Of a DNA stretch of 64,000 bases, positions 16,528 through 31,122 are shown piece after piece. The position numbers were made by a program, and so were the translations under genes. The notes under the pieces are model-generated. The model saw nothing but the letters and a program-made list of their open reading frames with translations. It had not been told where the DNA came from and made no database searches. This stretch comes from Synechococcus sp. NB0720_010 (GTDB lineage Bacteria; Cyanobacteriota; Cyanobacteriia; PCC-6307; Cyanobiaceae): contig NZ_CP090898.1 of assembly GCF_023078835.1 (NCBI RefSeq), forward strand, positions 434,001 through 498,000, given 5' to 3'. Positions within the stretch are counted from its first letter, which is position 1, and each line of letters starts with the position of its first letter.

Positions 16528-17451
16528 CTAAACGTCCTCCGCGCGATAGAGCGTCTGGCGGTAGAGCAGGGCACCGGCATGGCTGAACCAGCGATGGGAA
16601 ACCTCCTGCAGCACGCCGCCCTGGAACTCCACCCAACTGAAATGCCGCAGAGCACGACCCTGGGCGTCCTCGCTGTGGCGGGGGACAAACGCGGTATTGA
16701 GATAGGCCGTCCCGGATCGATCCCGGCAGAAGCTCTGACGCTCCCCCTGACCGCGTTTCAGCCGGTGATGCATGTGGCCAAACACCACCAACGGCAGAGG
16801 ACGACTGCGGCGAATGCAATCGATCGCCAGGGCTAAATCCTGATCGCCCCAATCACAGGCCGGGGCCTTCCAATCGCGGCCGCAGGGATCGGAGGCCTCG
16901 CTACCCAGACCCGTCGGACCGGAATGGGCCAAAACCACCAGAGGGATCGAGGGATCAGCCCGCAATGCCGCTGCAGTGATGCGCTCGGCAGACTCCTCGA
17001 CGCCCACCGGACCAAAGACCGCCTCGGCGGCGCGGTTGAGGTAATGCCCCCCTCCGGCACTGGCCGGACGGGCTCCCACGACAGCCAGCCCCGGGGGCTG
17101 CAACTCCCGCAGGCCCCAGCCGCAGTGCAGATCCCCCAGAAGCGTCAACTGCGCCTGAAGGGTGCGGCCACTGGCATCGCGGCCGGTGTCGTGGTTGCCA
17201 AGGATGCAGGCCAAGGGCAAGGCCAGGCGCGAGAGACGCTTGGGGATGGCCTGCTGGCCGTCGCTGAGGTCACCCACGACCAGCAGGGCGTCCGGTTTGA
17301 CCTGGGACAGAACCTCCTCATCCAGGCCGTCCCATTGGCCATGCAAATCTCCGGCGATGGCAATGCGGAGGGGGGCCAAGCGGTGCCTAGGCTTCCGCCA
17401 TCCTGCACCACTTAGGGCCAGATCCTTGGTTTTCGCGGCAGCCCAGAACAC
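16528..17451 (-). CDS. Calcineurin-like metallophosphoesterase (TIGR04168-like)
   Basis: All metal-binding motifs are visible: GDLHGQW (Asp35, His37), GDLSDG (Asp61), GNHD (Asn86, His87), [10 protein letters not shown] and GHMHH. The cyanobacterial family TIGR04168 has this length and layout; its substrate is unknown. The GTG start has GGAGG only two bases upstream and lies inside the opposite-strand nadA start region, so the two divergent genes would overlap by 26 bp. A TTG at 17379 would remove the overlap and still keep the whole domain. Confidence 0.82.
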
Positions 17452-19562: not shown

Positions 19563-20588
19563 ATGCCCCTCGCCCCAGGCGGCCTGCTGCAGCTCACCCG
19601 AGAAGGGCTGTACTGCGCGGCAGCTGGTGCCTGGATCGATCCCTGGCGGCCAGTCCCCAGGGCCCTCATCACCCATGCCCATGCCGACCACGCCCGGCCG
19701 GGATGTGGGGAGTACTGGGCCGTGGCCTGCAGTGAGGGGGTCCTGCGGGAGCGGCTGGGGGCCGAGATCAATCTGTTACCGGTGGGCTACGGGGACCTGA
19801 ACCGCATTGGCGACGCTCGGGTCTCCTTTCACTCGGCCGGACATGTCCTCGGCAGTGCCCAAATCCGACTGGAAGCCGGCGGAGAGAGCTGGCTGGTCAG
19901 CGGCGACTACAAGCGCTGCGCCGACCCCAGCTGCGAACCCTTTGAGCCCGTACAGGCCGACGTCTTCATCAGCGAAGCCACCTTTGGCCTTCCCATCTAC
20001 CGCTGGCAAAGCGGGGCGGAGGTAGCCCGTGAAATCGTCAACTGGTGGCGCGGCGCGCCGGACAGGCCTTCGGTGCTCTTTTGCTACGCCTTTGGGAAGG
20101 CACAGCGGGTGCTCGCCGAGCTGCATCGACTCGGCATCGAGGAGACGGTGCTGCTCCATGGCGCCGTCGATCGACTGATGGCGCCCTACCGCGAGGCGGG
20201 GGTTGCCATGCCACCGACGATGGCTCTCTCCCAGTTGCCCAAGGATGAATCCCTCGCGGGACGCCTGGTGATTGCGCCGCCGGCGGCCCACCGCAGCCGT
20301 GGGCTGAGTCGCTTGGCGAAGGCCCAGAACGGCTTTGTGAGCGGCTGGATGGCCGTACGGGGAGCACGGCGCCGGCGGGGCTATGGCCGCGGTTTCGTGA
20401 TGAGCGATCACGCCGACTGGTCCGGATTGGTGCGAACCGTTCAGGAGAGCCAAGCCCAGCAGGTCTATGTGACCCATGGCCAGAGCGCCGTTCTCTCGCG
20501 CTACCTCAAGGAGGTGGAGGGCATCAGCGCTGAACCCCTCGAGGGGGCCTTTGAAGCCGAACGCTTCGATGAGGAGGAGACGCCATGA
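19563..20588 (+). CDS. Ligase-associated DNA exonuclease (MBL/beta-CASP fold)
   Basis: The metallo-beta-lactamase motif HAHADHA (His38, His40, Asp42, His43) is followed by SAGHVLGSAQIRLE, SGDYKRC, a beta-CASP region (FCYAFGKAQRVLAEL) and VMSDHADW. This is the layout of the exonuclease of the ligase-associated DNA damage response set (TIGR04122-like), related to mRNA 3'-processing nucleases but acting on DNA. It overlaps the ligase gene by 4 bp (ATGA), so the two are translationally coupled. The 341 aa match the family. Confidence 0.9.
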   Translation: MPLAPGGLLQLTREGLYCAAAGAWIDPWRPVPRALITHAHADHARPGCGEYWAVACSEGVLRERLGAEINLLPVGYGDLNRIGDARVSFHSAGHVLGSAQIRLEAGGESWLVSGDYKRCADPSCEPFEPVQADVFISEATFGLPIYRWQSGAEVAREIVNWWRGAPDRPSVLFCYAFGKAQRVLAELHRLGIEETVLLHGAVDRLMAPYREAGVAMPPTMALSQLPKDESLAGRLVIAPPAAHRSRGLSRLAKAQNGFVSGWMAVRGARRRRGYGRGFVMSDHADWSGLVRTVQESQAQQVYVTHGQSAVLSRYLKEVEGISAEPLEGAFEAERFDEEETP

Positions 20589-22225
20589 AGGCCTTCTCCG
20601 CACTCTTCGCTGAACTCGATGGCACCAGCAGCACCACAGCCAAGCTGGAGGCCCTGGAGACCTATTTCCGCTCGGCTCCTCCGGCTGATGGGGCCTGGGC
20701 CCTGGCCCTGCTCTTGGGCAAGCGCCGCAAGCGCTTGATCACCGGCCGGCGCCTGCGCGAAATCTGCCTGAAGGCCCTGGCGCTGCCGGATTGGCTGTTC
20801 GAAGCCTGCAGCAACCAGGTGGGGGATTCGGCCGAAACGGTCTCCCTGCTGTGGGGCCAACACCAAACGGATCCACCAAGGCAGGGCCCAGAGAGAAGCC
20901 TGGGGGACTGGATGGAGCAGGTCCTCCCGAAACTGGCTGCAGCGGAGGGGGAGGAGCAGGAGGCCGCGGTGATTCGCTGCTGGCAAACCCTGCCCAACAG
21001 CGAGCTCCTGTTGATCAACAAGTTGCTCAGTGGTGGTTTCCGCGTCGGGGTCTCCACCGGGCTGGTGACCCGCGGCGTCGCCCGCAGCGCCGATCTCGAT
21101 GAAGCCCTCATCGCCCATCGCCTAATGGGCGGGTTCACACCCTCGGCTGAGAGCTTCACCGCGCTGACCGCAGCCGCTAGCGATGGCGATGCCCTGGCGG
21201 CGAGGCCCTATCCGTTTTTCCTCGCCAGCCCAATCGAACTCGAGCAGATCCAGCAGACCCCTGCGGACCAGTGGCAACTCGAGTGGAAGTGGGACGGCAT
21301 CCGCGGTCAGCTGATCCACCGCAGTGGCGGTTGCAGTCTCTGGAGCCGCGGCGAGGACCTGATCAATGAGGCCTTTCCGGAGCTCATCAGCCTCGCTGAG
21401 ACCTTGCCGCAGGGAACGGTGCTCGATGGGGAGGTCTTGATCTGGCAGGCCGAGGCCCCAGCCCCAGAACCCTTTGCCACCCTGCAGCGGCGCCTCGGAC
21501 GTAAGGCCCCGAGCCGGACCCTGCAAAAGCAGTGCCCAGCGGCCTTCATGGCCTACGACCTCCTGGAGCTGGAGGGATGTGATCTACGGCAAGGGCCGCT
21601 GCAGGAGCGCCGTGAGCAGTTGGAAACGCTGGTTCAACGCTGGAGCGACGCCCGAGCACACGGCGAGGAGCGGTCACGCTTACGCCTCTCCGAGACCCCT
21701 GCCCTCAAGGGTTGGAGCGAGCTCGAGCCCCTGCGGGAGCAAGCGCGGGAGAAAGGGGCCGAAGGGCTGATGCTCAAGGCAAAACCCTCCCCCTACCTCG
21801 TGGGTCGCAAGCGCGGGCACTGGTGGAAACACAAGCTCGAGCCCTTCCACCTCGATGCCGTCCTGCTCTACGCCCAATCCGGGAGTGGTCGGCGAGCGAA
21901 CCTCTACACCGATTACAGCTTTGGGCTGTGGAATGACGAGGGCGAGTTGGTGACCTTCGCCAAGGCCTACTCGGGCCTCGACGATGGCGAGATTCGGCAA
22001 GTGGATCGCTGGATCCGGGCCCACACCACCGAGCGTTTTGGTCCGGTTCGAGCGGTCGAGCCGACCCTGGTCTTCGAGCTGGCCTTCGAAGGTCTGCAAC
22101 CCTCCCAACGTCACAAGTGCGGCCTGGCGGTTCGCTTCCCGCGCATCAGTCGCTGGCGCCAAGACAAACCCGCCTCTGAGGCCGACAGCGTCGCCAGTGC
22201 CCTGGCCTTGATGGAGGGGCGATGA
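20585..22225 (+). CDS. ATP-dependent DNA ligase (ligase-associated damage response type)
   Basis: The adenylation motif KWDG lies at residues 235-238 (Lys235 takes AMP), followed by the motif IIIa-like region VLDGEVLIWQ, AYDLLELEG, EGLMLKAKPSPY and motif V WWKHKLEP. An N-terminal helical domain and a C-terminal OB-fold (DYSFGLWNDEGELVTFAKAYSGL) complete the enzyme. The 546 aa fit the PP_1105-type family (TIGR04120-like). It is the middle gene of a three-gene operon with 4-bp overlaps on both sides. It is additional to the NAD-dependent LigA that any bacterium of this kind would need elsewhere. Confidence 0.93.
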   Translation: MKAFSALFAELDGTSSTTAKLEALETYFRSAPPADGAWALALLLGKRRKRLITGRRLREICLKALALPDWLFEACSNQVGDSAETVSLLWGQHQTDPPRQGPERSLGDWMEQVLPKLAAAEGEEQEAAVIRCWQTLPNSELLLINKLLSGGFRVGVSTGLVTRGVARSADLDEALIAHRLMGGFTPSAESFTALTAAASDGDALAARPYPFFLASPIELEQIQQTPADQWQLEWKWDGIRGQLIHRSGGCSLWSRGEDLINEAFPELISLAETLPQGTVLDGEVLIWQAEAPAPEPFATLQRRLGRKAPSRTLQKQCPAAFMAYDLLELEGCDLRQGPLQERREQLETLVQRWSDARAHGEERSRLRLSETPALKGWSELEPLREQAREKGAEGLMLKAKPSPYLVGRKRGHWWKHKLEPFHLDAVLLYAQSGSGRRANLYTDYSFGLWNDEGELVTFAKAYSGLDDGEIRQVDRWIRAHTTERFGPVRAVEPTLVFELAFEGLQPSQRHKCGLAVRFPRISRWRQDKPASEADSVASALALMEGR

Positions 22226-24717
22226 CCAGCGCGCTTCAGCCGATCGAAGCCTGGTTCCAGGAGCAAGGCTGGTCACCCATGGCCTTTCAAAAGGAGGTCT
22301 GGAACGCCTACCTCCAGGGCCAGAGCGGATTGCTGCAGGTGCCGACCGGCTCAGGCAAGACCTACGCCGCCGTGATGGGGCCCATCGCCGAGATGCTCCA
22401 GGAGCCAGGCCAAGGCAAGGGCCTGCGACTGCTGGTGATCACGCCCCTGCGGGCCCTCTCGCGGGATCTGGCGCTAGCGATTGAGCAACCGATTGAGGCC
22501 ATGGGCTGGCCGATTCGTGTCGGAATCCGCAATGGCGACACGGCGACCTATGAGCGCAGCAAGCAGCTGCGCACCCCACCGCAAATCCTGATCACCACCC
22601 CGGAATCGCTGAGTGTGCTGTTGGCCAACCCCAAGGCACCGGCGTTATTCGAGGGGCTTCAGGCCGTCGTCATTGACGAGTGGCATGAGCTGATGGGCAG
22701 TAAACGGGGCAGCCAGTGTGAGCTCTGCCTGAGTTGGCTGCGGCAACAACGGCCCAAACTGCGCACCTGGGCGATCAGCGCGACGATCGGCAACCTGGAG
22801 GAGGCCGCCCAGGCAGCCCTCGGGGCAAGGGGCAGCAAGCCCCTGATCGTCTCGGCGCAACTGCAGCGGGAGACCGCCATCCGCAGCCTCTTGCCCGAGC
22901 AGATCGACGGATTCCCCTGGGGGGGCCACCTCGGACTGCGGATGTACGAGGAGTTAATTGCGGGACTCGATCCCGCCATCAGCACGCTGCTCTTCACCAA
23001 CACCCGCAACCAGGCCGAGCGCTGGCACCAGTGCCTGCGCTTCGCCTGCCCGGAGATGGAGGACGCCCTGGCCCTGCACCACAGCGCGATTGATCGCACG
23101 GAACGGGAGGCCATCGAAGCGGCCGTCAAGGCGGGGGATCTGCGCTGGGTGGTCTGCACCAGCTCCCTGGACCTGGGGGTGGACTTCCAGCCGGTGGAGC
23201 GGGTGGTGCAGATCGGCAGTGCCAAAAATCTGGCGCGGCTACTGCAGCGGGCCGGGCGCAGCGCCCACTGCCCCGGTGGGACGTCGCAGGTGCTGTTCAT
23301 GCCCACCAACGCCTTGGAGCTGCTGGAGGTCAGTGCCATGCGCAGGGGCCTGGCCAGTGGCTTGGTGGAACACCGCAAACCACCGGAACTCCCCCTCGAT
23401 GTCCTGCTTCAGCATCTGGTCAGCCGGGCCTGCGGCCCGGGGTTTGAGCCCGAGCAAGAACTCGCGACCGTTCGCAGCAGCTGGAGTTTCCGCAACATCA
23501 GTGACGCTCAGTGGCAGTGGTGCCTGGACTTTCTCGAGCACGGCGGCCAATGCCTTGGGGCCTACCCCCGCTACCGCAAGTTGGTGCGCTGCAGGCCAGG
23601 CAGCGATGAGCCGGCAGAAGCGGGCCAGCCCTACCGCTACCGGGTGCTCGACAAGACCATCGCCCGCCATCACCGCTTCAACATCGGCACGATCACCGCG
23701 GATCGCTCCGTCACAGTGCGGTTTGTACGGGGCGCTGTCATCGGCCATGTGGAAGAGGCCTTCATCGGACGGCTGAAACCGGGCGATGTCTTCTTCTTTG
23801 CCGGGCGGCAACTCGAGTTCGTGCGCCTGCGTGAGATGACTGCTCAGGTCAAGGCCACCAGCCGCAAGAGCTCCACGGTTCCAGCCTGGGCCGGAGGACA
23901 GATGGCCCTCTCTGATCTGCTGAGCGAACACCTGCGGGAGGAGGTCGATCGTTGTGCCCAGGGCCTGAGCGATGAAGTGGAGCTCGACACACCGGAATTA
24001 CGGGCGCTGGAACCACTGCTGCGGCGCCAGGCTGATCTCTCACGGATTCCCAGGCGGGAGCAGATCCTGCTTGAGGTGTGCTCGAGCCGTGAGGGCAGCC
24101 ATCTCTTCGTCTTCCCCTTCGAAGGGCGCTTTGTCCATGAAGGCATTGGTTTTCTCTGGGCCTGGCGCCTGGCCCGTTATCGCCCCAGCACGGTCACGGT
24201 CTCGATCAACGACTACGGCTTTGAGCTACTTGCCCCCAAGCGCTACCCCTTTGACGAGCTGATTGAGCTCCATGGCGATGAGCTGCTCGACGTCGCCAAC
24301 CTGGACGACGACCTGGAGCAGGCCCTGAACTTCTCAGAGCTCTGCCGCCGCCGCTTTCGCTCCATTGCCCAGGTCAGCGGCCTGGTCACCCAGGCCATGC
24401 CCGGACAGAACAAAACGGGAGGACAACTGCAGATCAGTGCCGCCCTGCTCTTTGACGTCTTTCAAAAACACGAGCCGGATCACCTGCTGCTGGAGCAGGC
24501 CCGCCGTGAGGTGCTGGAGGAGCAACTCGAGACCCAACGCTTGCGCGCGGCCCTGGAGCGAATGGCCTCCAGTGAATGGCTGATGGAGCGCACCCAACGC
24601 CCGGGGCCACTGGCCTTTCCCCTCCTGGTGGAGCGCCTGAACAATCGACTCAGCAACGAGTCCGTGCTGGATCGGGTTCAGCGCTTGATCGCAGAGGCCA
24701 CCAAAGCGGAGCGCTGA
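22222..24717 (+). CDS. Ligase-associated DEXH-box helicase (Lhr-Core type)
   Basis: The 831-aa superfamily 2 helicase has Walker A PTGSGKT at residues 41-47, the Lhr-type box DEWHELMGSKRG, the SAT motif (AISATIGN), LLFTNTRNQAE, SSLDLGVDFQPVERVVQIGS and LQRAGRSAH, then a long Lhr-like C-terminal region with NIGTITADRSVTVRF. Lhr-Core enzymes translocate 3'-5' on single-stranded DNA and unwind RNA:DNA hybrids. It overlaps the ligase by 4 bp and ends the operon; the next gene is convergent. The size matches TIGR04121-type proteins. Confidence 0.93.
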   Translation: MTSALQPIEAWFQEQGWSPMAFQKEVWNAYLQGQSGLLQVPTGSGKTYAAVMGPIAEMLQEPGQGKGLRLLVITPLRALSRDLALAIEQPIEAMGWPIRVGIRNGDTATYERSKQLRTPPQILITTPESLSVLLANPKAPALFEGLQAVVIDEWHELMGSKRGSQCELCLSWLRQQRPKLRTWAISATIGNLEEAAQAALGARGSKPLIVSAQLQRETAIRSLLPEQIDGFPWGGHLGLRMYEELIAGLDPAISTLLFTNTRNQAERWHQCLRFACPEMEDALALHHSAIDRTEREAIEAAVKAGDLRWVVCTSSLDLGVDFQPVERVVQIGSAKNLARLLQRAGRSAHCPGGTSQVLFMPTNALELLEVSAMRRGLASGLVEHRKPPELPLDVLLQHLVSRACGPGFEPEQELATVRSSWSFRNISDAQWQWCLDFLEHGGQCLGAYPRYRKLVRCRPGSDEPAEAGQPYRYRVLDKTIARHHRFNIGTITADRSVTVRFVRGAVIGHVEEAFIGRLKPGDVFFFAGRQLEFVRLREMTAQVKATSRKSSTVPAWAGGQMALSDLLSEHLREEVDRCAQGLSDEVELDTPELRALEPLLRRQADLSRIPRREQILLEVCSSREGSHLFVFPFEGRFVHEGIGFLWAWRLARYRPSTVTVSINDYGFELLAPKRYPFDELIELHGDELLDVANLDDDLEQALNFSELCRRRFRSIAQVSGLVTQAMPGQNKTGGQLQISAALLFDVFQKHEPDHLLLEQARREVLEEQLETQRLRAALERMASSEWLMERTQRPGPLAFPLLVERLNNRLSNESVLDRVQRLIAEATKAER

Positions 24718-24725
24718 AGAGGAAC

Positions 24726-24986
24726 TCAGTAGCCGTAGCGCAGTCTGCGGACTTCCACTTCAAGGCGAACCATCTCCCGGCGTGCCTTCGAGGCGCAATG
24801 GGGGCTCTGATCCAGGGCCTCGTTGTAGCGATAGATCGCCTGGATGTAGTGCTGCTCCAAATCCCGCAGCTGGCCATCGCCAATCGCCCGCTTTCGCACC
24901 ATTCCCCTGAAAAAACGTCCCTCTCTGGCTCTAGCAACGGCAGCCGGGCCTGACACAGCCGGAGCAGGATGAGCATCAGAACTCAT
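24726..24986 (-). CDS. Hypothetical protein, 86 aa
   Basis: The start MSSDAHPAP gives an Ala-rich N-terminus and a charged helical remainder (QLRDLEQHYIQAIYRYNEAL and ARREMVRLEVEVRRL). It resembles the small DUF-type coiled proteins common in Synechococcus, with no catalytic motif. It ends 8 bp from the convergent helicase gene. Confidence 0.55.
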   Translation of the reverse strand: MSSDAHPAPAVSGPAAVARAREGRFFRGMVRKRAIGDGQLRDLEQHYIQAIYRYNEALDQSPHCASKARREMVRLEVEVRRLRYGY

Positions 24987-25037
24987 TGCCCCAGGGCTGG
25001 GATGGCGCAATAACAAGGCTGGTTCACAAAGGTGCGC

Positions 25038-25256
25038 ATGTCGGTGTCACGCAATCGATCAGCCGCTCGGCACACCCTTGAGCAGCAGATCCAAGCCGAG
25101 GCCCTCTCCTCTTGCGATGGCTTTGAACCACTGAGCCCCAGGCCCTGCGCCGCCGCCATGGCCCGCCCTTCGGCCGCCCAGAGCGGGTTTGGCCAGTGGT
25201 GGTCGCTGCTGGTGCGTTGGTGGAAGGGGCTCAAACAGCGCTTCGTCCCGGCCTGA
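25038..25256 (+). CDS. Hypothetical protein, 72 aa
   Basis: An AAAGG box six bases upstream supports the ATG giving MSVSRNRSAARH; a GTG two codons earlier is also open. The protein has a polar N-terminal half and a C-terminal amphipathic Trp-rich segment (FGQWWSLLVRWWKGLKQRF). Its stop abuts the stop of the convergent 116-aa gene with no gap. The family is unknown. Confidence 0.45.
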   Translation: MSVSRNRSAARHTLEQQIQAEALSSCDGFEPLSPRPCAAAMARPSAAQSGFGQWWSLLVRWWKGLKQRFVPA

Positions 25257-25607
25257 TCACCACTGGGCTGGCACCTGAGTCCATCCCTGTCGCAGCAGGT
25301 TCTGCCAGAGGCGCACCGCGTTGTAGCGGAGCATTCGGCTGTTGTGAAACGCCTGGATCTGGCCATCGCTGGCCAAGTCGGCATTGACCACCTCACACCA
25401 CTGGGCGTGGGCCGTCGGGTCGATCGTGGTGATCCGAACCACCTTGCTGCCGCAGGCCGAGCGCAACCAACCTGAACCGGCCCTGCCCTGACGCTTCTGC
25501 TCGCGTTTCTCCTGGGCCGCCACCGTCACGACAAAGTCCCGCGGCGATCGAGAGTAGGTGTTCTCACCGATGGTGCAGCTCTGGGCGTGACGCTTCGATG
25601 CCCCCAC
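25257..25607 (-). CDS. Hypothetical protein with a DUF1651-like tail, 116 aa
   Basis: The N-terminal half is basic (EKREQKRQGRAGSGWLR). The C-terminus SRMLRYNAVRLWQNLLRQGWTQVPAQW closely parallels the ELWRALLSRGWTPVAPQW end of the DUF1651 gene at 3.8 kb, so it may be a divergent relative. It opens at a GTG; no strong ribosome-binding site was seen. The function is unknown. Confidence 0.55.
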   Translation of the reverse strand: MGASKRHAQSCTIGENTYSRSPRDFVVTVAAQEKREQKRQGRAGSGWLRSACGSKVVRITTIDPTAHAQWCEVVNADLASDGQIQAFHNSRMLRYNAVRLWQNLLRQGWTQVPAQW

Positions 25608-25622
25608 GCAGAGAAGAGAACA

Positions 25623-25649
25623 GGCCCCCTTGAATCGGGGGTCTTTTTT
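25623..25649 (+). terminator. Rho-independent terminator, plus strand
   Basis: A five- to six-pair GC stem (CCCCC with GGGGG around a TTGAATC loop) is followed by six T residues on the plus strand. No annotated plus-strand gene ends close by: the nearest plus-strand stop is 366 bp upstream and the intervening DNA codes for a protein on the other strand. It overlaps the last codon of the minus-strand lipoprotein gene. Confidence 0.6.
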
Positions 25650-26181
25650 ATGGCGTCGTCGTCCAGCGGCGGCAGATCTTGGCCACCAGCACCTCTCGGG
25701 GGTCCTGGGAGTTCAGTTGTCCTTGGCTGATCTTGAACTGCGCCAGGTTCTCGGCCACCCCAGGGATCGAGTCGCGCACGCAATAGGCCGTCACCACCGG
25801 GAGTGTCCGACGCGCCCCGTTGGGACCCTCCACGATTGGAGCGAAGCGGGCCACGCGGTAGAGCACGCCGTGCTCCTTCTCGCTCTGGATCAGTGCCTCA
25901 GCGGCAGCCAGACGCGCCTGGTCCCCCTCCAGGTCCTTCTGCCAGAAGTCAACGGGGATGCCGTCGCGTTCATTGAAGTCGACGTTTTTCTTGGCCCAGG
26001 CGATCTCGGCCTTTAACGACTCGAGATTCACCCGCTGCGCAATGCGTCGGTCCTCCAGTTGAACGCTGGCCTCCTCCACCAACAGCCGTTGACCGGAGCT
26101 GGTCTTCACCACCAGATCAGAACCGTCATCTCCGCTCTGGCACCCCACCAGGAGCAGCGCCAACAACAGCAGCAGGCGCAT
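25648..26181 (-). CDS. Putative lipoprotein, 177 aa
   Basis: The start MRLLLLLALLLVGCQSGDD has a lipobox (LVGC, lipidated Cys13), indicating a membrane-anchored lipoprotein. The mature part includes SGQRLLVEEASVQLEDRR, a charged helical stretch (NLESLKAEIAWAKKNVDF) and a Cys-containing C-terminal region (VVTAYCVRDSIPG, VAKICRRW). No family is recognised. The open frame continues upstream but without a signal-like start. Confidence 0.65.
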   Translation of the reverse strand: MRLLLLLALLLVGCQSGDDGSDLVVKTSSGQRLLVEEASVQLEDRRIAQRVNLESLKAEIAWAKKNVDFNERDGIPVDFWQKDLEGDQARLAAAEALIQSEKEHGVLYRVARFAPIVEGPNGARRTLPVVTAYCVRDSIPGVAENLAQFKISQGQLNSQDPREVLVAKICRRWTTTP

Positions 26182-26274
26182 CGGGCCCCATCCATCGTCC
26201 TTCCCTTGTAGCGGCTGGCATGAAGATTCAGCGGGAATCAGAACCGACGGTCGCAAACCCTGCAAGCTGAGCGG

Positions 26275-26427
26275 ATGAGCCTCACGCACTGCCCCCTCTG
26301 CATCGGCCTGGCCGTTCTCTCGATTGGCCGTGCCGCAGCCCATCTCAGTGGGCTATGGCTCATGCTCAGGGGACCAGACACAGCCGCATGCGCACCCTCA
26401 GCTGGGCTGACCTTGACCGGGCCCTAG
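26275..26427 (+). CDS. Possible small Cys-containing protein, 50 aa
   Basis: The ATG-TAG frame encodes MSLTHCPLCIGLAVLSIGRA, then a hydrophobic stretch (HLSGLWLMLRG) and a short tail. A CPLC motif and one weak helix are visible. It overlaps the start of the phosphoribosyltransferase by 40 bp in another frame, and the ribosome-binding site is weak (GAGCGG), so the call is tentative. Confidence 0.3.
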   Translation: MSLTHCPLCIGLAVLSIGRAAAHLSGLWLMLRGPDTAACAPSAGLTLTGP

Positions 26428-26780
26428 ACGCCACGCTGGAGAAGTTTGAGTCGTCGTCTTGGACGGGGGTCTACGGGGTTCCGCGCGGTGGACTGGTCCT
26501 GGCGGTCTGCCTGAGCCATCGCCTGGGCCTACCGCTACTGGATCAGCCAGAGGCGGGTTGCCTGGTGGTCGACGACATCTATGAAACCGGGCGCACTGTT
26601 GAGCCCTTCCGAAGCCGCACGGACATCACCACCTTGGTCTGGATCAGCAAGGTGGAACCGCAGTGGTGGAGCGCCCTCGAGGTGAACGACTCGAGCGAAT
26701 GGGTGCTCTTCCCCTGGGAGAACGCAGCAGCAGCCAGAGCCGATGAACAGCAGTACCGCGCCTCACGCTCCCATGGCTAA
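26388..26780 (+). CDS. Phosphoribosyltransferase-like protein, 130 aa
   Basis: The PRPP-binding loop is plain: CLVVDDIYETGRT at residues 58-70, with the paired aspartates Asp62-Asp63. An earlier GVYGVPRGGLVLAV segment matches the PPi loop of type I PRTases. At 130 aa it is short, lacking much of the variable hood that sets base specificity. The start MRTLSWADL matches the domain edge. It overlaps the deoxyribosyltransferase gene, suggesting a joint role in nucleoside or nucleobase salvage (inference). Confidence 0.75.
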   Translation: MRTLSWADLDRALDATLEKFESSSWTGVYGVPRGGLVLAVCLSHRLGLPLLDQPEAGCLVVDDIYETGRTVEPFRSRTDITTLVWISKVEPQWWSALEVNDSSEWVLFPWENAAAARADEQQYRASRSHG

Positions 26781-27255
26781 ACCAACCCTCTATCTGGCCT
26801 CGCCCTACGGCTTCTCGGCCCATTGGCGCTCGCGCTTGCTGCCTGACTTTGTCGAGGCCCTTGAGCAGCTAGGGATCGAGGTCTGGGAGCCGTTCACGCG
26901 AAATGGTCAGGTGGATCTCGCGCAGCCGGGCTGGGCCTGGCGCGTCGCCCAGGCGGATCTGCAGGACGTGCGTGATGCCGACGCCCTCCTCGCCATCGTC
27001 AACGGCACGCCTCCCGATGAAGGCGTGATGCTGGAACTCGGTGCCGCGATTGCCCTCGGGAAACCTGTTTTTCTTTACCGCGATGACTTCCGGCGCTGCA
27101 GCGACTCCGAGGACTATCCCCTGAATCTGATGGCCTTCAGCGGCTTGCCCCAGGAAGGCTGGCAGGACTGGCTCTATGGATCGATCGAGGAGCTCAAGGC
27201 CCCGAGTAAAGCGCTCATGCAATGGCTCAGGGGCTGGGCGTCAGGCGAGATCTGA
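26773..27255 (+). CDS. Nucleoside 2-deoxyribosyltransferase family protein, 160 aa
   Basis: The segments LYLASPYGFSAHW, WRVAQADLQDVRDADALLAIVNG, PPDEGVMLELGAAIALGKPVFLY and the C-terminal NLMAFSG are the fold and active-site pattern of this family; the Glu in VMLELG is the expected catalytic nucleophile. Such enzymes move deoxyribose between bases or hydrolyse deoxynucleosides or their monophosphates. The start MAKPTLYL fits the domain; an ATG ten codons upstream is also open. It is coupled to the upstream phosphoribosyltransferase gene. Confidence 0.82.
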   Translation: MAKPTLYLASPYGFSAHWRSRLLPDFVEALEQLGIEVWEPFTRNGQVDLAQPGWAWRVAQADLQDVRDADALLAIVNGTPPDEGVMLELGAAIALGKPVFLYRDDFRRCSDSEDYPLNLMAFSGLPQEGWQDWLYGSIEELKAPSKALMQWLRGWASGEI

Positions 27256-27447
27256 GGAAGCGCCAGCGTCTTTGGCCCTTTGGGCGGCACGCATCGCCAC
27301 CTCGACGGGGATCGTCCCGTTGGCCTCGAGTCCGCTCAGCTGCTGAACCATCTGACGCCGCTGTTCAGGGGTGAGCTTCAACAGATCGGCGAGGACATTG
27401 GGGTTGATGCGTCCCAGTCGCTCCCGAGCCAGCCCATCCATCAGCAC
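27241..27447 (-). CDS. Small helical hypothetical protein, 68 aa
   Basis: The product is highly helical: RINPNVLADLLKLTPEQRRQMVQQL and a second helix IPVEVAMRAAQRAKDA. It has no membrane segment. The GTG start could be replaced by an ATG two codons in. It overlaps the end of the deoxyribosyltransferase gene by 15 bp on the opposite strand. No family is recognised, although the composition and codon pattern look coding. Confidence 0.55.
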   Translation of the reverse strand: MLMDGLARERLGRINPNVLADLLKLTPEQRRQMVQQLSGLEANGTIPVEVAMRAAQRAKDAGASSDLA

Positions 27448-27484
27448 CGTTCAATCCAGGCATGCCCTCCTAAGCGAAAGACCA

Positions 27485-27503
27485 AAAAAGCGAACAGCTT
27501 TTT
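27485..27503. other. AT-stem hairpin between divergent small genes
   Basis: AAAAAGC-GAACA-GCTTTTT forms a 7-bp stem with a five-base loop and T-runs on both strands. It lies between a minus-strand start (27447) and a plus-strand start (27539). Its shape is like a weak bidirectional terminator, which is odd in a divergent promoter region; it may instead be a protein-binding site. Confidence 0.35.
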
Positions 27504-27538
27504 CGGCACGCGTCAGCTCACCCAAACAGAGCGCGACA

Positions 27539-27676
27539 ATGCGGCCCATGAACAACCACCGACCCCTCTCGGCTCTGTTTTTGGCCCTGGTCCTCGCCGT
27601 GGTGCCCCTCTCAGCGGCCCTGTTGATCCACGGACACGCGAATTTTCAAGCCGTCTTCAGCAATGCTTTCGGATAA
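27539..27676 (+). CDS. Small single-helix membrane protein, 45 aa
   Basis: The frame has two close ATGs (27539 and 27548). The product has a basic N-terminus (NNHRP), one hydrophobic helix (LSALFLALVLAVVPLSAALL) and a short lumenal or periplasmic tail (IHGHANFQAVFSNAFG). It resembles an uncleaved signal-anchor microprotein. No known photosystem subunit is matched. Confidence 0.45.
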   Translation: MRPMNNHRPLSALFLALVLAVVPLSAALLIHGHANFQAVFSNAFG

Positions 27677-27743
27677 GAACTTTTGGGTTTGAGTCCACCC
27701 GCGAAATCCCTAGCTACCGCCTGAATAGAGACGGTGGCGCCCA

Positions 27744-27914
27744 ATGTTCTTTTACGAGCTGAACGTCACGCTCCCCCAGCGCATCCTGAGGGTTCCACTG
27801 CAGGCAGAGACCCAAGAGCAGGCTTGGCATCTCAGCCGCGACCTCTTCCCTGATCACGACCTGAAGTTGGTGCCTCGGCAGCGGAAGTGTGACCCTGAGT
27901 TCTGGGCGATCTAG
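27744..27914 (+). CDS. Small soluble hypothetical protein, 56 aa
   Basis: The ATG-TAG frame encodes MFFYELNVTLPQRILRVPL, then a helix (ETQEQAWHLSRDLF) and a basic end (KLVPRQRKCDPEFWAI). The strand-helix-strand look is protein-like. It lies 67 bp after the 45-aa membrane protein in the same direction. No family is recognised. Confidence 0.45.
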   Translation: MFFYELNVTLPQRILRVPLQAETQEQAWHLSRDLFPDHDLKLVPRQRKCDPEFWAI

Positions 27915-27925
27915 GGGGCGTCCGA

Positions 27926-28006
27926 TCAGGACTTCTCGAGACGACGCACGATTAAAGCCATCGCACCCAAGGAGCCAGCCAAGGCAATCAGCAACGCAAT
28001 CGTCAT
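27926..28006 (-). CDS. Candidate 26-aa membrane microprotein
   Basis: The ATG-TGA frame encodes one hydrophobic helix (starting MTIALLIALAGSLGAMAL) ending in a basic VRRLEKS tail. The pattern is that of the smallest photosynthetic-complex subunits such as PetL or PsaM, but I do not recognise it as any of them. Its ATG overlaps the ATG of the divergent GGCT gene at a CATG palindrome, and no ribosome-binding site is obvious. It needs expression evidence. Confidence 0.3.
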   Translation of the reverse strand: MTIALLIALAGSLGAMALIVRRLEKS

Positions 28007-28445
28007 GGGTGGGACCAACGGGGCTCCTGATTATGTCGGCCTGGTGTTCGTCTACGGGACGCTGAAGCGTGGCGAGCGCTCCCATGGCCTTCTGGGCGAT
28101 GCCGCGTTCGAAGGAACGGCGCTCCTCAGTGGTCTGGAGCTCTACAACCTTGGGCCCTTCCCGATGGCGATCTGCAATCCCCAGGCCAGTCGCCCCATCA
28201 GCGGTGAGCTCTACAGCATCACGGCCCAGGAACTGCAGGCGCTGGATCGATTCGAGGGAGCACCCCGGCTCTACCGGCGGGAGCTGCGCCGCCTGACCGA
28301 TGGTCGCGAGGCCTGGGTCTATCTCGGCAAGCCGCGGCAGGTGCGATTCGCTCCAGTCCTGAGCAACGGTTGCTGGAGCGGATCAAATCACAACCAACCG
28401 ACGCCTCTGTCTGCAGCTTCTACGCTCAGGCCGGTTTCCAGCTGA
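28005..28445 (+). CDS. Gamma-glutamylcyclotransferase-like (AIG2/GGCT fold) protein
   Basis: The fold signature VFVYGTLKRGERSHGLL is at residues 15-31, followed by YNLGPFPMAI, ISGELYSITAQELQALDRFEG with the candidate catalytic Glu, and YRRELRRLTDG. GGCT-fold enzymes release 5-oxoproline from gamma-glutamyl peptides. The last 30 residues are unlike the family and may be a lineage-specific tail. The ATG at 28005 is shared back-to-back with the minus-strand microprotein; a GTG at codon 15 is an alternative start. It lies 3 bp upstream of a glutathione S-transferase gene. Confidence 0.8.
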   Translation: MGGTNGAPDYVGLVFVYGTLKRGERSHGLLGDAAFEGTALLSGLELYNLGPFPMAICNPQASRPISGELYSITAQELQALDRFEGAPRLYRRELRRLTDGREAWVYLGKPRQVRFAPVLSNGCWSGSNHNQPTPLSAASTLRPVSS

Positions 28446-28448
28446 TCC

Positions 28449-29027
28449 ATGGCCCTCACCCTGTTCGGCGGCGCCCGCAGCCGCGCCTCCATGCCGCGCT
28501 GGTACATGGAAGAACGGGGAATCCCCTACACCTGGCAGCTCCTGGACATGGAGGCCGGGGAGCACCGCCAAGAGCCCTTCACAGCCATCAACCCCTTCGC
28601 CAAGGTGCCGGCGCTGGTGGATGAGGATCCCAGCCTGCCCGGCGGGCGACTGCAGCTATTTGAAAGTGGCGCAATCCTCCTCTATCTAGCGGAGCGTTTT
28701 GGGGGCGAATGCCAGACCGCCGCGGAGCGGGGCCTGGCTCAGCAGTGGGTGCTCTTTGCCAACGCCACCCTGGCCACGGCCCTGTTTGTCCCCTCCAACC
28801 GGGAGCGGGAGTTCCCCCGGCTGATGGAAGTGCTCGATCGCAAGCTCGCTAGCGGTCCCCTGATGGGCGGCGACTGGGGCGTCGCCGATTGCGCCGTGAA
28901 CGCCTACCTGGCCTACCTGCCGATCTTCTTCCCACAGATTGATCTGAGCCCCTACCCGCAGGTTCAAGCCACGATTGCCGCGACCCAACAACGGGCGGCC
29001 TACCAACGGGTCATGGGCCAGCGTTGA
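28449..29027 (+). CDS. Glutathione S-transferase family protein
   Basis: The N-terminal thioredoxin-like domain reads ARSRASMPRWYMEERGIPYTW, then INPFAKVPALVDEDPSL with the cis-Pro, and FESGAILLYLAERFGG; the C-terminal helical domain includes GVADCAVNAYLAYLPIF. The 192 aa are typical. It sits between a gamma-glutamylcyclotransferase and PdeM, overlapping the latter by 4 bp (TTGA). Glutathione turnover next to conjugation is a plausible pairing, while the link to PdeM may be only positional. Confidence 0.88.
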   Translation: MALTLFGGARSRASMPRWYMEERGIPYTWQLLDMEAGEHRQEPFTAINPFAKVPALVDEDPSLPGGRLQLFESGAILLYLAERFGGECQTAAERGLAQQWVLFANATLATALFVPSNREREFPRLMEVLDRKLASGPLMGGDWGVADCAVNAYLAYLPIFFPQIDLSPYPQVQATIAATQQRAAYQRVMGQR

Positions 29028-29674
29028 GCTCCAACGAAACCCTGACCTGGGGCAATAGCCGCCTGGAGTTGCTGCCCCAACGGGCCGCCTGGGATCCAGA
29101 GCTCCAGGTCCTGCTGCTGGCCGATCTCCATCTCGGCAAGGCCGAGAGCTTTCAGGCGCAGGGGATCCCCTTGCCCAGCGATGGGGATCAGGGGAATCTC
29201 AATCGGCTGCTGGAGCTCACGGCCTCGCTTCACCCGCAGCAGGTGCTGGTCCTCGGGGACCTGATCCATAGCCAGCTGGGACTGACCCCTGAACTCCAGG
29301 AGAAGCTCGCAGCTCTTCCCGAACTGATGGGGTGCGAGCTGGTCCTGGTCGGAGGGAATCACGATCGCGGCGCCGTCTTTCCCTCGCTGCAGGCCCAACC
29401 ATCCCTGCAACGAGGCGCCTGGTGGCTGAGCCACGAACCGGAGACGCCTCCGGAGCCTGAGCTGCTCAACATCTGCGGCCACGTGCACCCCGTGGCGGTC
29501 CTCGGACAAGGCTCTGATCGGCTGCGGTTGCCCTGTTTTGGCTTGGATTTCAGCCAGCAACGCCTGCTGCTGCCCGCCTTCGGCGAACTCACGGGCGGCC
29601 ATCCAGCTCCACTGAAGATGCAGCGCTGGGTCATTGCCGAAGACCGGGTTCTGAAACTGCCGGGCGCGAACTAA
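29024..29674 (+). CDS. pdeM: PdeM-like ligase-associated DNA endonuclease
   Basis: This metallophosphoesterase has ADLHLGK (Asp34, His36), LGDLIHS (Asp78), GGNHDRG (Asn111, His112) and CGHVHPV (His152, His154). The layout and 216-aa length match the Mn-dependent endonuclease of the ligase-associated DNA damage response set (TIGR04123-like), shown for the Pseudomonas putida homologue to incise single-stranded DNA. Translation must start at TTG within the 4-bp GST overlap. It is 4.3 kb from the exonuclease-ligase-helicase operon. Confidence 0.87.
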   Translation: MSSNETLTWGNSRLELLPQRAAWDPELQVLLLADLHLGKAESFQAQGIPLPSDGDQGNLNRLLELTASLHPQQVLVLGDLIHSQLGLTPELQEKLAALPELMGCELVLVGGNHDRGAVFPSLQAQPSLQRGAWWLSHEPETPPEPELLNICGHVHPVAVLGQGSDRLRLPCFGLDFSQQRLLLPAFGELTGGHPAPLKMQRWVIAEDRVLKLPGAN

Positions 29675-29796: not shown

Positions 29797-31122
29797 GTGT
29801 TTGCGTTTTTTGTCGCCATCGCGCCGCCCTTGCCCGAGGGCGAGCCGGCCAGAACGGGTTCCTCACGCTTGAGTGCGGTCGGCGGCCAGGCCGAACCCTT
29901 CCGCTACCTGCCCGACCAGGACGTCTACGCCCTCGACTTCGACCCGCGCAAGGTCCGCATTGATCTGCTCGAGGGCTGGGACCGGGAGCAGGACGCCTAC
30001 AACGACTCCTCCGCCCTGGCCTACGTCTCCGGGCCGATGTACGAGCGGCATGTCAACAGCCTGGGCCGGGAGATCACGGTTCCGCTAGGGGACCTGAAGT
30101 TGGGAGATCAGGTCTGGAGAGGCCGAAACCGAACCGCCGCCCGCCAACGGGCCTTTGTGGGGATTCGCCACGACGGCGGTGCTGATTTCGGCTTTGGCGA
30201 ACTCACATCCGAGCGGGCCGCTCAGTACGACACCTTCATCGGTGGACTGCACAGCCTCTACAACGATCTTCTGGATCCCCCGCCTGAATACCGCGGCGCC
30301 TACAGCGTTTCGATGGGGCAGCAAATCCGCTATTACCTGCCGCGGATTCGGATGGTCATCGGCCTGCGCAGCGATGGTCGCCTCGAGGTGCTCATGAGCC
30401 GCGATGGCCTGACCCTCGAGCAAACCAAAAGCCTGGCCCGCCAGCGCGGTTTCAAGGCGGCCTACCTGCCCGATCACGCCTCCAAAAGCCGCCTGATCAT
30501 TCCAGGGGTCAAAGGATTCACCGAAGCCGATGCGAACTGGATCAGCGGTGGAGCCACCAGCTTTGTCCACGTCCCCTACCTGCTGCGACTGAGCCCCCGC
30601 GCCATCCCCCTGCGGGGCAATCTGCTGGCCAGCCTCACGCCGCGCCTGGGACAACGGGATTGCAGCAACCCGCTGCAATGCGGCCAGAGCTTCGGTGCGC
30701 AGCTGGCCGACCGCGCCCTCGCCGGGCTGAACCGCCTGATGGAACAGGGGGTCGAGCCGGTGGCGCGCTTGATCTGGTCGCCCGCACCCCTGGCCAAACC
30801 GCCCGGCAGCGCCAAGCGCGCGCCGCTGCGTGAACCGCCGATCACGGCCGATCCCCTAGCCCTCAGGGAACTTCAGGAGAGCGCAGCCAACAGCACGCTC
30901 GAGAAAGAACTCACGCCTGAAGCCCCCGACCTACCGCCACCCCTGGTGCTGCTGGATGGGCAGCCCTTGCCCCAGGAACCGGAGTTCTTAAACGGGGATG
31001 CCGATGCCCTCGCGCCTGCTGAAGTGATGCCCCCGGGGGACTTCCCCCTCGGGGCACCAACTCCACCGCCGCTGCTCCCCCCTCGGCCGCTGCCACCGGT
31101 GCTGGCGCCGCCGCCGCTCTAG
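29797..31122 (+). CDS. Exported hypothetical protein with a proline-rich tail, 441 aa or longer
   Basis: From the GTG at 29797 the product starts with a hydrophobic stretch (FAFFVAIAPPLP), but the open frame runs 37 codons upstream and there encodes a basic, Trp-rich segment (KQKRPHWRRKRWIPLWLPAG) that makes a better signal anchor. No ATG, GTG or TTG is present in that extension. The mature part contains RMVIGLRSDGRLEVLMSRDG and KAAYLPDHASKSRLIIPG, resembling phosphodiester glycosidase-like proteins only loosely. The last 100 residues are Pro/Leu-rich (repeated PPPL and PLPP). Confidence 0.75.
   Translation: MFAFFVAIAPPLPEGEPARTGSSRLSAVGGQAEPFRYLPDQDVYALDFDPRKVRIDLLEGWDREQDAYNDSSALAYVSGPMYERHVNSLGREITVPLGDLKLGDQVWRGRNRTAARQRAFVGIRHDGGADFGFGELTSERAAQYDTFIGGLHSLYNDLLDPPPEYRGAYSVSMGQQIRYYLPRIRMVIGLRSDGRLEVLMSRDGLTLEQTKSLARQRGFKAAYLPDHASKSRLIIPGVKGFTEADANWISGGATSFVHVPYLLRLSPRAIPLRGNLLASLTPRLGQRDCSNPLQCGQSFGAQLADRALAGLNRLMEQGVEPVARLIWSPAPLAKPPGSAKRAPLREPPITADPLALRELQESAANSTLEKELTPEAPDLPPPLVLLDGQPLPQEPEFLNGDADALAPAEVMPPGDFPLGAPTPPPLLPPRPLPPVLAPPPL

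What the first reader, a model, noticed from the sequence alone, without database searches (positions are those of the whole stretch)
19563..29674. Complete but split ligase-associated DNA damage response set
Seen: MBL/beta-CASP exonuclease, ATP ligase (KWDG) and Lhr-Core helicase (DEWHE) are linked by 4-bp overlaps, and the matching PdeM-type endonuclease lies 4.3 kb downstream. Known: these four families form the ligase-associated DNA damage response cluster studied in Pseudomonas putida by Shuman's group. Inferred: together they form a nick/gap processing pathway. Unusual is that PdeM is detached and translationally coupled to a glutathione S-transferase and a gamma-glutamylcyclotransferase-like gene, so its expression may follow thiol or oxidative stress rather than the other three genes.
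Basis: partly seen in the sequence, partly recalled or inferred. Interest (0 to 1): 0.65.

Follow-up and report, generated by a model that had tools for sequence, protein, structure and literature searches.

The report
Scattered all-or-none DNA repair gene set
This cyanobacterium carries the four known genes of an accessory DNA-repair kit with one gene moved away from the other three, and in the cyanobacteria sampled the four are nearly always kept or lost together even when they lie far apart, which suggests that each is of little use without the others.

Summary
Exonuclease (19563-20588), ATP ligase (20585-22225) and Lhr-Core helicase (22222-24717) overlap by 4 bp; PdeM/MPE lies at 29024-29674; all four pass NCBI's curated cut-offs. 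The split is not unusual here: of 75 genomes of the order with all four, PdeM abuts lhr only in one genus (25 genomes); in the other 50 it is 0.7-700 kb away or on another contig. In four cyanobacteria outside the order the genes lie far apart or on four contigs. What stands out is near all-or-none inheritance: 75 of 101 genomes have four genes, 25 none, one three; in a phylum sample the same 19 of 244 have all four. Ligase and PdeM change together in 7.6 of 8 tree-independent pairs, none opposite, though about half of the changes lie in the genus where the genes are linked. Scars show PdeM lost at its own site. The GST link is real in one sub-clade (11 of 75), but GST does not track PdeM (1.9 of 9). 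Verdict: dispersed variant of a known repair cluster; no evidence for thiol-stress control.

The parts
19563..20588 (+). MBL/beta-CASP exonuclease of the ligase-associated set; HAHADH motif seen in the sequence
   Evidence: TIGR04122 equivalog 439.2 bits, cut-off 325
20585..22225 (+). ATP-dependent DNA ligase; motif I KWDG seen in the sequence
   Evidence: TIGR04120 587 bits, cut-off 400; N-terminal, catalytic and C-terminal DNA ligase Pfam domains; 4-bp overlap with the exonuclease gene
22222..24717 (+). Lhr-Core DEXH helicase, 831 aa; DEWHE seen in the sequence; WH_Lhr and DEAD_assoc domains
   Evidence: TIGR04121 1063.7 bits, cut-off 850; PF19306, PF08494; 4-bp overlap with the ligase gene
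29024..29674 (+). PdeM / MPE metallophosphoesterase endonuclease; TTG start; GD, GNHD, HEP and GHVHP motifs conserved
   Evidence: TIGR04123 188.8 bits, cut-off 150; structures named Nuclease MPE, 6nvo/6nvp, E about 5e-28 with the motifs aligned
28449..29027 (+). glutathione S-transferase-like gene overlapping PdeM by 4 bp; a neighbour, not a member of the set
   Evidence: PF02798, PF13409; directly before PdeM in 11 of 75 PdeM genomes, ortholog in 41 of 101
28005..28445 (+). gamma-glutamylcyclotransferase-like (GGACT) gene, 3 bp before GST; this adjacency was seen in no other locus examined
   Evidence: PF06094; in G044 about 2.7 kb with a sulfatase gene (PF00884) separates it from GST
29797..31122 (+). 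conserved unnamed protein gene downstream of PdeM; not a member of the set, but marks PdeM's site
   Evidence: found after PdeM in 23 of 39 PdeM loci examined; no Pfam match

Best explanation
This is the ligase-associated DNA damage response set (Exo, ATP ligase, Lhr-Core, PdeM/MPE) in a dispersed form: a three-gene operon plus PdeM at its own site. SHOWN: the four families; separate placement; near all-or-none presence; co-loss of separated genes. INFERRED from family biochemistry: Lhr-Core translocates 3'-to-5' on single-stranded DNA and opens a damaged region, PdeM cuts single-stranded DNA near the lesion, the MBL exonuclease trims the ends, and the ATP ligase seals the result. The products act in trans, so linkage is dispensable, but the activities depend on each other, so that when one is lost the rest soon go. 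PdeM was separated from lhr by genes put between them (same strand and order lig-lhr-pdeM in all 23 genomes with a gap under 20 kb) and elsewhere by longer-range rearrangement; its pairing with GST is a later feature of one sub-clade.
For: Curated-family matches for all four. 75 all / 25 none / 1 three-of-four in 101 genomes. Same 19 of 244 genomes for each family in the phylum sample (G299's ligase and PdeM are each split between frames and below cut-off). Ligase vs PdeM: 7.6 of 8 tree-independent pairs go the same way, 0 opposite, median sign-test p 0.008; GST as a control against PdeM 1.9 of 9, not significant. G004 keeps only about 50 codons of PdeM in its usual place beside the 29797-type gene and has no match for the other three; in its five nearest relatives on the tree lhr lies 222-369 kb from PdeM on the other strand. 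G062 has GST next to the 29797-type gene with PdeM gone, and no match for the other three. Each gene tree puts cyanobacteria on one side of a branch: ligase 100*, exonuclease 99*, PdeM 95*, lhr 100*. PdeM matches solved Nuclease MPE.
Against: G042 (draft, 70 contigs) keeps exo, lig, lhr and GST but has no PdeM; homology to its relatives stops in PdeM's first codons. So PdeM loss is tolerated at least for a while. Outside the contiguous genus g2 only 4 changes remain, of which 3.6 agree on average, too few for the sign test. Six changes fall inside g2, where one deletion can take all four genes, as in G067. The thresholds would hide remnants. Only one control gene (GST) was counted. No expression or biochemical data for this organism; order of action and lesion type are untested.
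Confidence: 0.78

Rival explanations
1. One reading: PdeM has been recruited into a thiol or oxidative-stress unit with GST and the cyclotransferase, and is expressed apart from the other three.
For: GST overlaps or closely precedes PdeM in 11 genomes of seven genus codes in one sub-clade, with stop/start overlap in the window and G044 and apparently in G053. Several other genes and minus-strand open frames lie between lhr and the GGACT gene, so one transcript for all four is doubtful; the minus-strand frames have no family match and two of them no tblastn match in 15 related loci, so they may not be genes.
Against: GST not found in 36 of 75 PdeM genomes and present in 2 of 26 without PdeM. 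GST changes with PdeM in only 1.9 of 9 independent pairs. G062 and G042 have GST without PdeM. The cyclotransferase was seen in 9 other loci and abuts GST in none.
Confidence: 0.1
2. The all-or-none pattern is only shared history: genome reduction removed many repair genes in a few ancestors, and the four genes need not work together.
For: 20 of the 25 genomes without the set are small (1.5-1.9 Mb) and 16 of the 25 fall in one clade that may have lost it once. PMC3940434 (passages read) lists an ATP-dependent DNA ligase among repair genes lost early in Prochlorococcus.
Against: Isolated losses in G004, G031 and G062 inside clades that otherwise keep the set. GST, a control gene in the same genomes, does not behave so. 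In G111, G160, G261 and G299, of three families outside the order, the dispersed genes are all present.
Confidence: 0.17
3. Not exclusive of the main reading: the Prochlorococcus-like genus lost the set with its relatives and re-acquired a contiguous operon by transfer.
For: It nests in a clade whose other 16 genomes lack the set. Its four proteins are 36-54% identical to the window's in three loci, against 48-85% for the other loci of the order compared (tblastn). The operon is contiguous, and the 29797-type gene is not found beside it in the three loci read.
Against: AU tests do not reject a place with the other Cyanobiaceae (p 0.39) or with the genera g5 and g9 (p 0.19); the branch is very long and its letter make-up skewed. 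All four trees still put it with cyanobacteria.
Confidence: 0.45

Closest known systems
Four-gene nucleic acid repair cluster of Pseudomonas putida (ligase, Lhr-Core, MPE, Exo; Shuman group; its papers known here only from citations seen; the 2019 paper is not held)
   Same: The same four families; PdeM matches the solved Nuclease MPE with conserved motifs
   Different: Here three genes form the operon and PdeM lies 4.3 kb away; in four cyanobacteria outside the order all four are apart or on separate contigs
Contiguous exo-lig-lhr-pdeM operon of Prochlorococcus (genus code g2, and ten loci of that name among L258-L269)
   Same: Same four families, same gene order, cyanobacterial side of the gene trees
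   Different: Contiguous, and strongly diverged
Split clusters of other bacteria: exo next to lig without lhr or pdeM nearby in 20 of 40 non-cyanobacterial loci with full flanks
   Same: The set is not one operon
   Different: Exo and lhr near lig but no PdeM: 2 of 40 there, 5 of 7 in non-Prochlorococcus cyanobacterial loci. PMC8301817 (section 17 read) reports MPE near bacterial lhr genes in 276 of 319 genomes

Membership tests
Ligase-associated DNA damage response proteins (NCBIfam TIGR04120-04123) | Each protein passes its curated cut-off | tested here: met
   439/325, 587/400, 1064/850, 189/150 bits
Ligase-associated DNA damage response proteins (NCBIfam TIGR04120-04123) | All four present in one genome | tested here: met
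   G000 has one match for each family at the thresholds used
PdeM / MPE nuclease | Metallophosphoesterase motifs (D-H, GD, GNHD, H, GHxH; metal-ligand roles recalled) aligned to solved MPE | tested here: met
   alignment to 6nvo/6nvp
[quoted passage not shown]
   needs purified protein
Four-gene contiguous repair cluster | exo, lig, lhr and pdeM adjacent in one cluster | tested here: not met
   lhr ends 24717, PdeM starts 29024, other genes between; filed as a dispersed variant, not as the contiguous cluster
Lhr-Core helicase | RecA domains plus winged helix plus DEAD-associated domain, no long C-terminal extension | tested here: met
   831 aa with PF00270, PF00271, PF19306, PF08494
   GST adjacent in 11 of 75; GGACT next to GST in none of 9 other loci with GGACT

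The most novel reading that the evidence does not exclude
The four enzymes form an all-or-none module: each step leaves a DNA intermediate that only the next enzyme can resolve, so losing one member makes the others a burden and selection clears them from distant chromosomal sites. Cyanobacteria, which scattered the genes without uncoupling their fate, would be a natural genetic test of the interdependence of a pathway otherwise inferred from gene neighbourhood and single-enzyme biochemistry.
Probability: 0.33. Interest if true: 0.65.

Novelty: new variant of a known kind. Interest (0 to 1): 0.45.

Why it matters
As far as the passages seen here show, the functional link between these four repair enzymes rests largely on their sitting side by side in genomes. 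Where the genes are scattered that argument disappears, yet in the cyanobacteria sampled they are still kept and lost together. That is evidence beyond linkage that they form one pathway, and it points to organisms where the dependence can be tested gene by gene.

Tried and rejected
Thiol-stress unit: rejected as unsupported (GST control). 'Exonuclease pseudogene in G042': one search flagged one TGA inside the match; the gene reads without a stop over the 328 aligned residues, so the idea was dropped. Shared dispersal in G111, G160, G261 and G299: in 9-12 kb loci (no exo or lhr locus of G299 was read) the neighbours of the four genes are not shared, apart from three single weak matches, so one ancestral dispersal could not be shown. 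Re-acquisition in Prochlorococcus: left open. Promoter scan: 0 sites against 0.8 expected, uninformative; terminator-like sites 10 against 6.4 (sd 2.8), not clearly above chance. Paper searches listed no paper whose title or opening abstract concerns cyanobacterial co-occurrence of this set; subscription papers are missing from that library. PMC9611098 (one passage) only lists two of the proteins in a Sphingomonas table.

Rows dropped: G057 left out of the rpoBC tree (100 of 101 genomes of the order, plus 7 outgroup genomes with rpoB only; FastTree, no bootstrap). L327 too short for the ligase tree (103 of 104 rows used). 54 of 103 ligase rows used for the AU tests. In one search Prochlorococcus loci numbered above L262 were left out and short or split proteins dropped; its trees and those are 'quick' ones with long branches, whose stars deserve less trust. 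In one search the profiles were grown from window proteins, so distant lhr or PdeM may be missed in other phyla. Neighbourhoods were read for 40 loci of 40 genomes (39 with PdeM), not for all 75 PdeM genomes. Searches used strict E-value limits, and one search scored three candidates a genome.
Full report
1. Observation. NCBIfam assigns each to the expected curated family well above cut-off: exonuclease TIGR04122 439 against 325, ligase TIGR04120 587 against 400, helicase TIGR04121 1064 against 850, PdeM TIGR04123 189 against 150. The DNA shows ATGA overlaps between exo/lig and lig/lhr, and a TTGA overlap between GST and PdeM. PdeM aligns to the solved Nuclease MPE (6nvo, 6nvp; E about 5e-28) with its metallophosphoesterase motifs conserved. 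The helicase's best PDB matches are 5v9x and 7lhl, which PMC10953399 (passage seen) names as M. smegmatis Lhr; the exonuclease's are MBL/beta-CASP nucleases, weakly; the ligase's are DNA ligases.

2. Distribution in the order. 101 genomes of the window's order were searched with each family. 75 have all four (in G081 the lhr match stops at a contig break and is below cut-off; in G029 the ligase is matched in three pieces of one frame), 25 have none, and one (G042) has three (tally). In 25 genomes, all of genus code g2, the order is exo-lig-lhr-pdeM with lhr-pdeM gaps of 30-36 bp between profile matches; g2 sequences group with loci named Prochlorococcus. In the other 50 four-gene genomes PdeM is never adjacent: 23 have it within 20 kb of lhr, always on the same strand and in the order lig-lhr-pdeM; one (G044, same genus as the window) 35 kb away; 23 at 90-700 kb; 3 on another contig. 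The window's 4.3 kb is an ordinary value for its family. The trio is not uniform either: gaps are under 500 bp on both sides of lig in 27 of 51 genomes outside g2, and in G029 and G085 the exonuclease lies hundreds of kb away.

3. Distribution in the phylum. A sample of 244 genomes gave the same 19 genomes for all four families: 15 in the order and G111, G160, G261, G299 outside it. 48 of 244 have some match to the helicase family at E 1e-60, but only these 19 pass its cut-off. In G111, a one-contig genome, the genes lie at 0.15 (exo), 0.56 (pdeM), 3.88 (lhr) and 4.79 Mb (lig). In the drafts G160, G261 and G299 they lie on four different contigs each; in G299 ligase and PdeM are each read in two frames. 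Neighbouring genes are not shared among these genomes apart from three single weak matches. A named relative, L256 (Leptolyngbyaceae), has exo about 1.6 kb from lig, so dispersal is not complete in all of them.

4. Are the co-occurrences independent? A tree from RpoB, RpoC1 and RpoC2 of 100 of the 101 genomes plus seven outgroup genomes (rpoB only; FastTree) needs 11 changes of presence; counted alone, the genomes outside g2 need 4 and those of g2 need 6. Independent-pair counting gives 8 pairs on starred branches that differ in ligase; PdeM goes the same way in 7.6 on average, never the other way (median sign-test p 0.008); exo and lhr go the same way in 8 of 8. GST, the gene beside PdeM, is the control: of 9 pairs that differ in PdeM it goes the same way in 1.9, not significant. 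Without g2 only 4 pairs remain, 3.6 agreeing for PdeM, too few for significance by themselves.

5. Scars of loss. G004: about 50 codons of PdeM's end remain in the usual place upstream of the 29797-type gene; the alignment to G019 shows about 590 bp replaced by about 90 bp. The other three genes gave no match, and in G011, G017, G019, G075 and G093, its nearest relatives on the tree, lhr is 222-369 kb from PdeM on the other strand, so at least two events are needed if G004's ancestor was arranged alike. G062: GST and the 29797-type gene are neighbours with PdeM missing. G067 (g2): the alignment to G007 is consistent with one deletion of about 5.8 kb that removed exo, lig, lhr and PdeM's start. 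G042 is the counter-example: exo, lig, lhr and GST present, homology ending in PdeM's first codons; it is a 70-contig draft. The site in G031 was not read.

6. Origin. In each of the four gene trees the cyanobacterial sequences are one side of a branch: ligase 100*, exonuclease 99*, PdeM 95*, lhr 100*. This suggests one cyanobacterial lineage for each gene, though transfer within the phylum is not excluded and the trees are quick ones. The g2 branch is long, and tests do not settle whether it is vertical or re-acquired.

7. GST and the cyclotransferase. GST lies directly before PdeM in 11 of 75 PdeM genomes (codes g1, g8, g10, g13, g14, g15, g17), all in one sub-clade of the tree. A GST ortholog is present in 41 of 101 genomes; with PdeM the table is 39 both, 36 PdeM only, 2 GST only, 24 neither. 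G044 has GST and PdeM tightly joined but about 2.7 kb, with a sulfatase gene, between the cyclotransferase and GST. Among nine other loci in which the cyclotransferase was found, it abuts GST in none. The triplet is therefore particular to this genome among those compared. Whether PdeM is co-expressed with GST is untested.

8. Other bacteria. Among 40 non-cyanobacterial ligase loci with full flanks, 12 have all four genes within about 6 kb, 20 have only exo near lig, 5 only lhr, 2 exo and lhr, and 1 exo and PdeM (PdeM or lhr may be missed in distant phyla). PMC8301817 (section 17 read) reports MPE near bacterial lhr genes in 276 of 319 genomes. Splits are thus common in general; exo-lig-lhr without PdeM nearby looks characteristic of this order (5 of 7 non-Prochlorococcus cyanobacterial loci, 2 of 40 others).

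9. Mechanism. Shown here: families, motifs, arrangement, inheritance. From papers seen only as passages: Lhr-Core translocates 3'-to-5' on single-stranded DNA and lies next to MPE in many genomes (PMC7437997); ligase B together with an Lhr helicase and two nucleases implies DNA repair (PMC10799422). Inferred: unwinding, incision, trimming and sealing by four proteins acting in trans. PMC3940434 (passages) lists an ATP-dependent DNA ligase among repair genes lost early in Prochlorococcus, in line with the loss in the clade around g2 seen here. PMC2921402 (12 of 18 passages) showed nothing specific to these genes.

10. Verdict. Real, correctly named, functionally coherent; a dispersed variant of a known repair cluster. 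The detachment as such is ordinary for the order. The part worth attention is near all-or-none inheritance despite dispersal.

Noticed in passing
26355-27255 (+): A phosphoribosyltransferase-like gene and a nucleoside 2-deoxyribosyltransferase gene (overlapping open frames) follow lhr in this genome, in G044 and in a Vulcanococcus MAG (L251); the second is 86-89% identical there. They may be a nucleotide-salvage pair that stays near the operon.
   Followed up: partly
29797-31122 (+): A 441-aa protein with no Pfam match lies downstream of PdeM in 23 of 39 PdeM loci examined and is still there after PdeM is lost in G062 and G004.
   Followed up: partly
16528-17451 (-): A second calcineurin-like metallophosphoesterase (PF00149) lies about 2.1 kb before the operon on the other strand.
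   Followed up: no
G029:C1:208761-210797: The ligase of G029 matches its family in three pieces within one open frame of 939 codons without stops, which suggests in-frame extra segments in the ligase.
   Followed up: no
G299:C66:23640-25222 and G299:C64:14998-15617: In G299 both the ligase and PdeM are split between two frames while the exo and lhr matches have no stop: sequencing error or joint decay.
   Followed up: no
L343 9548-9565 (G067): The two alignments flanking the 5.8-kb deletion in G067 overlap by 18 bases, as expected of a deletion between short repeats.
   Followed up: no
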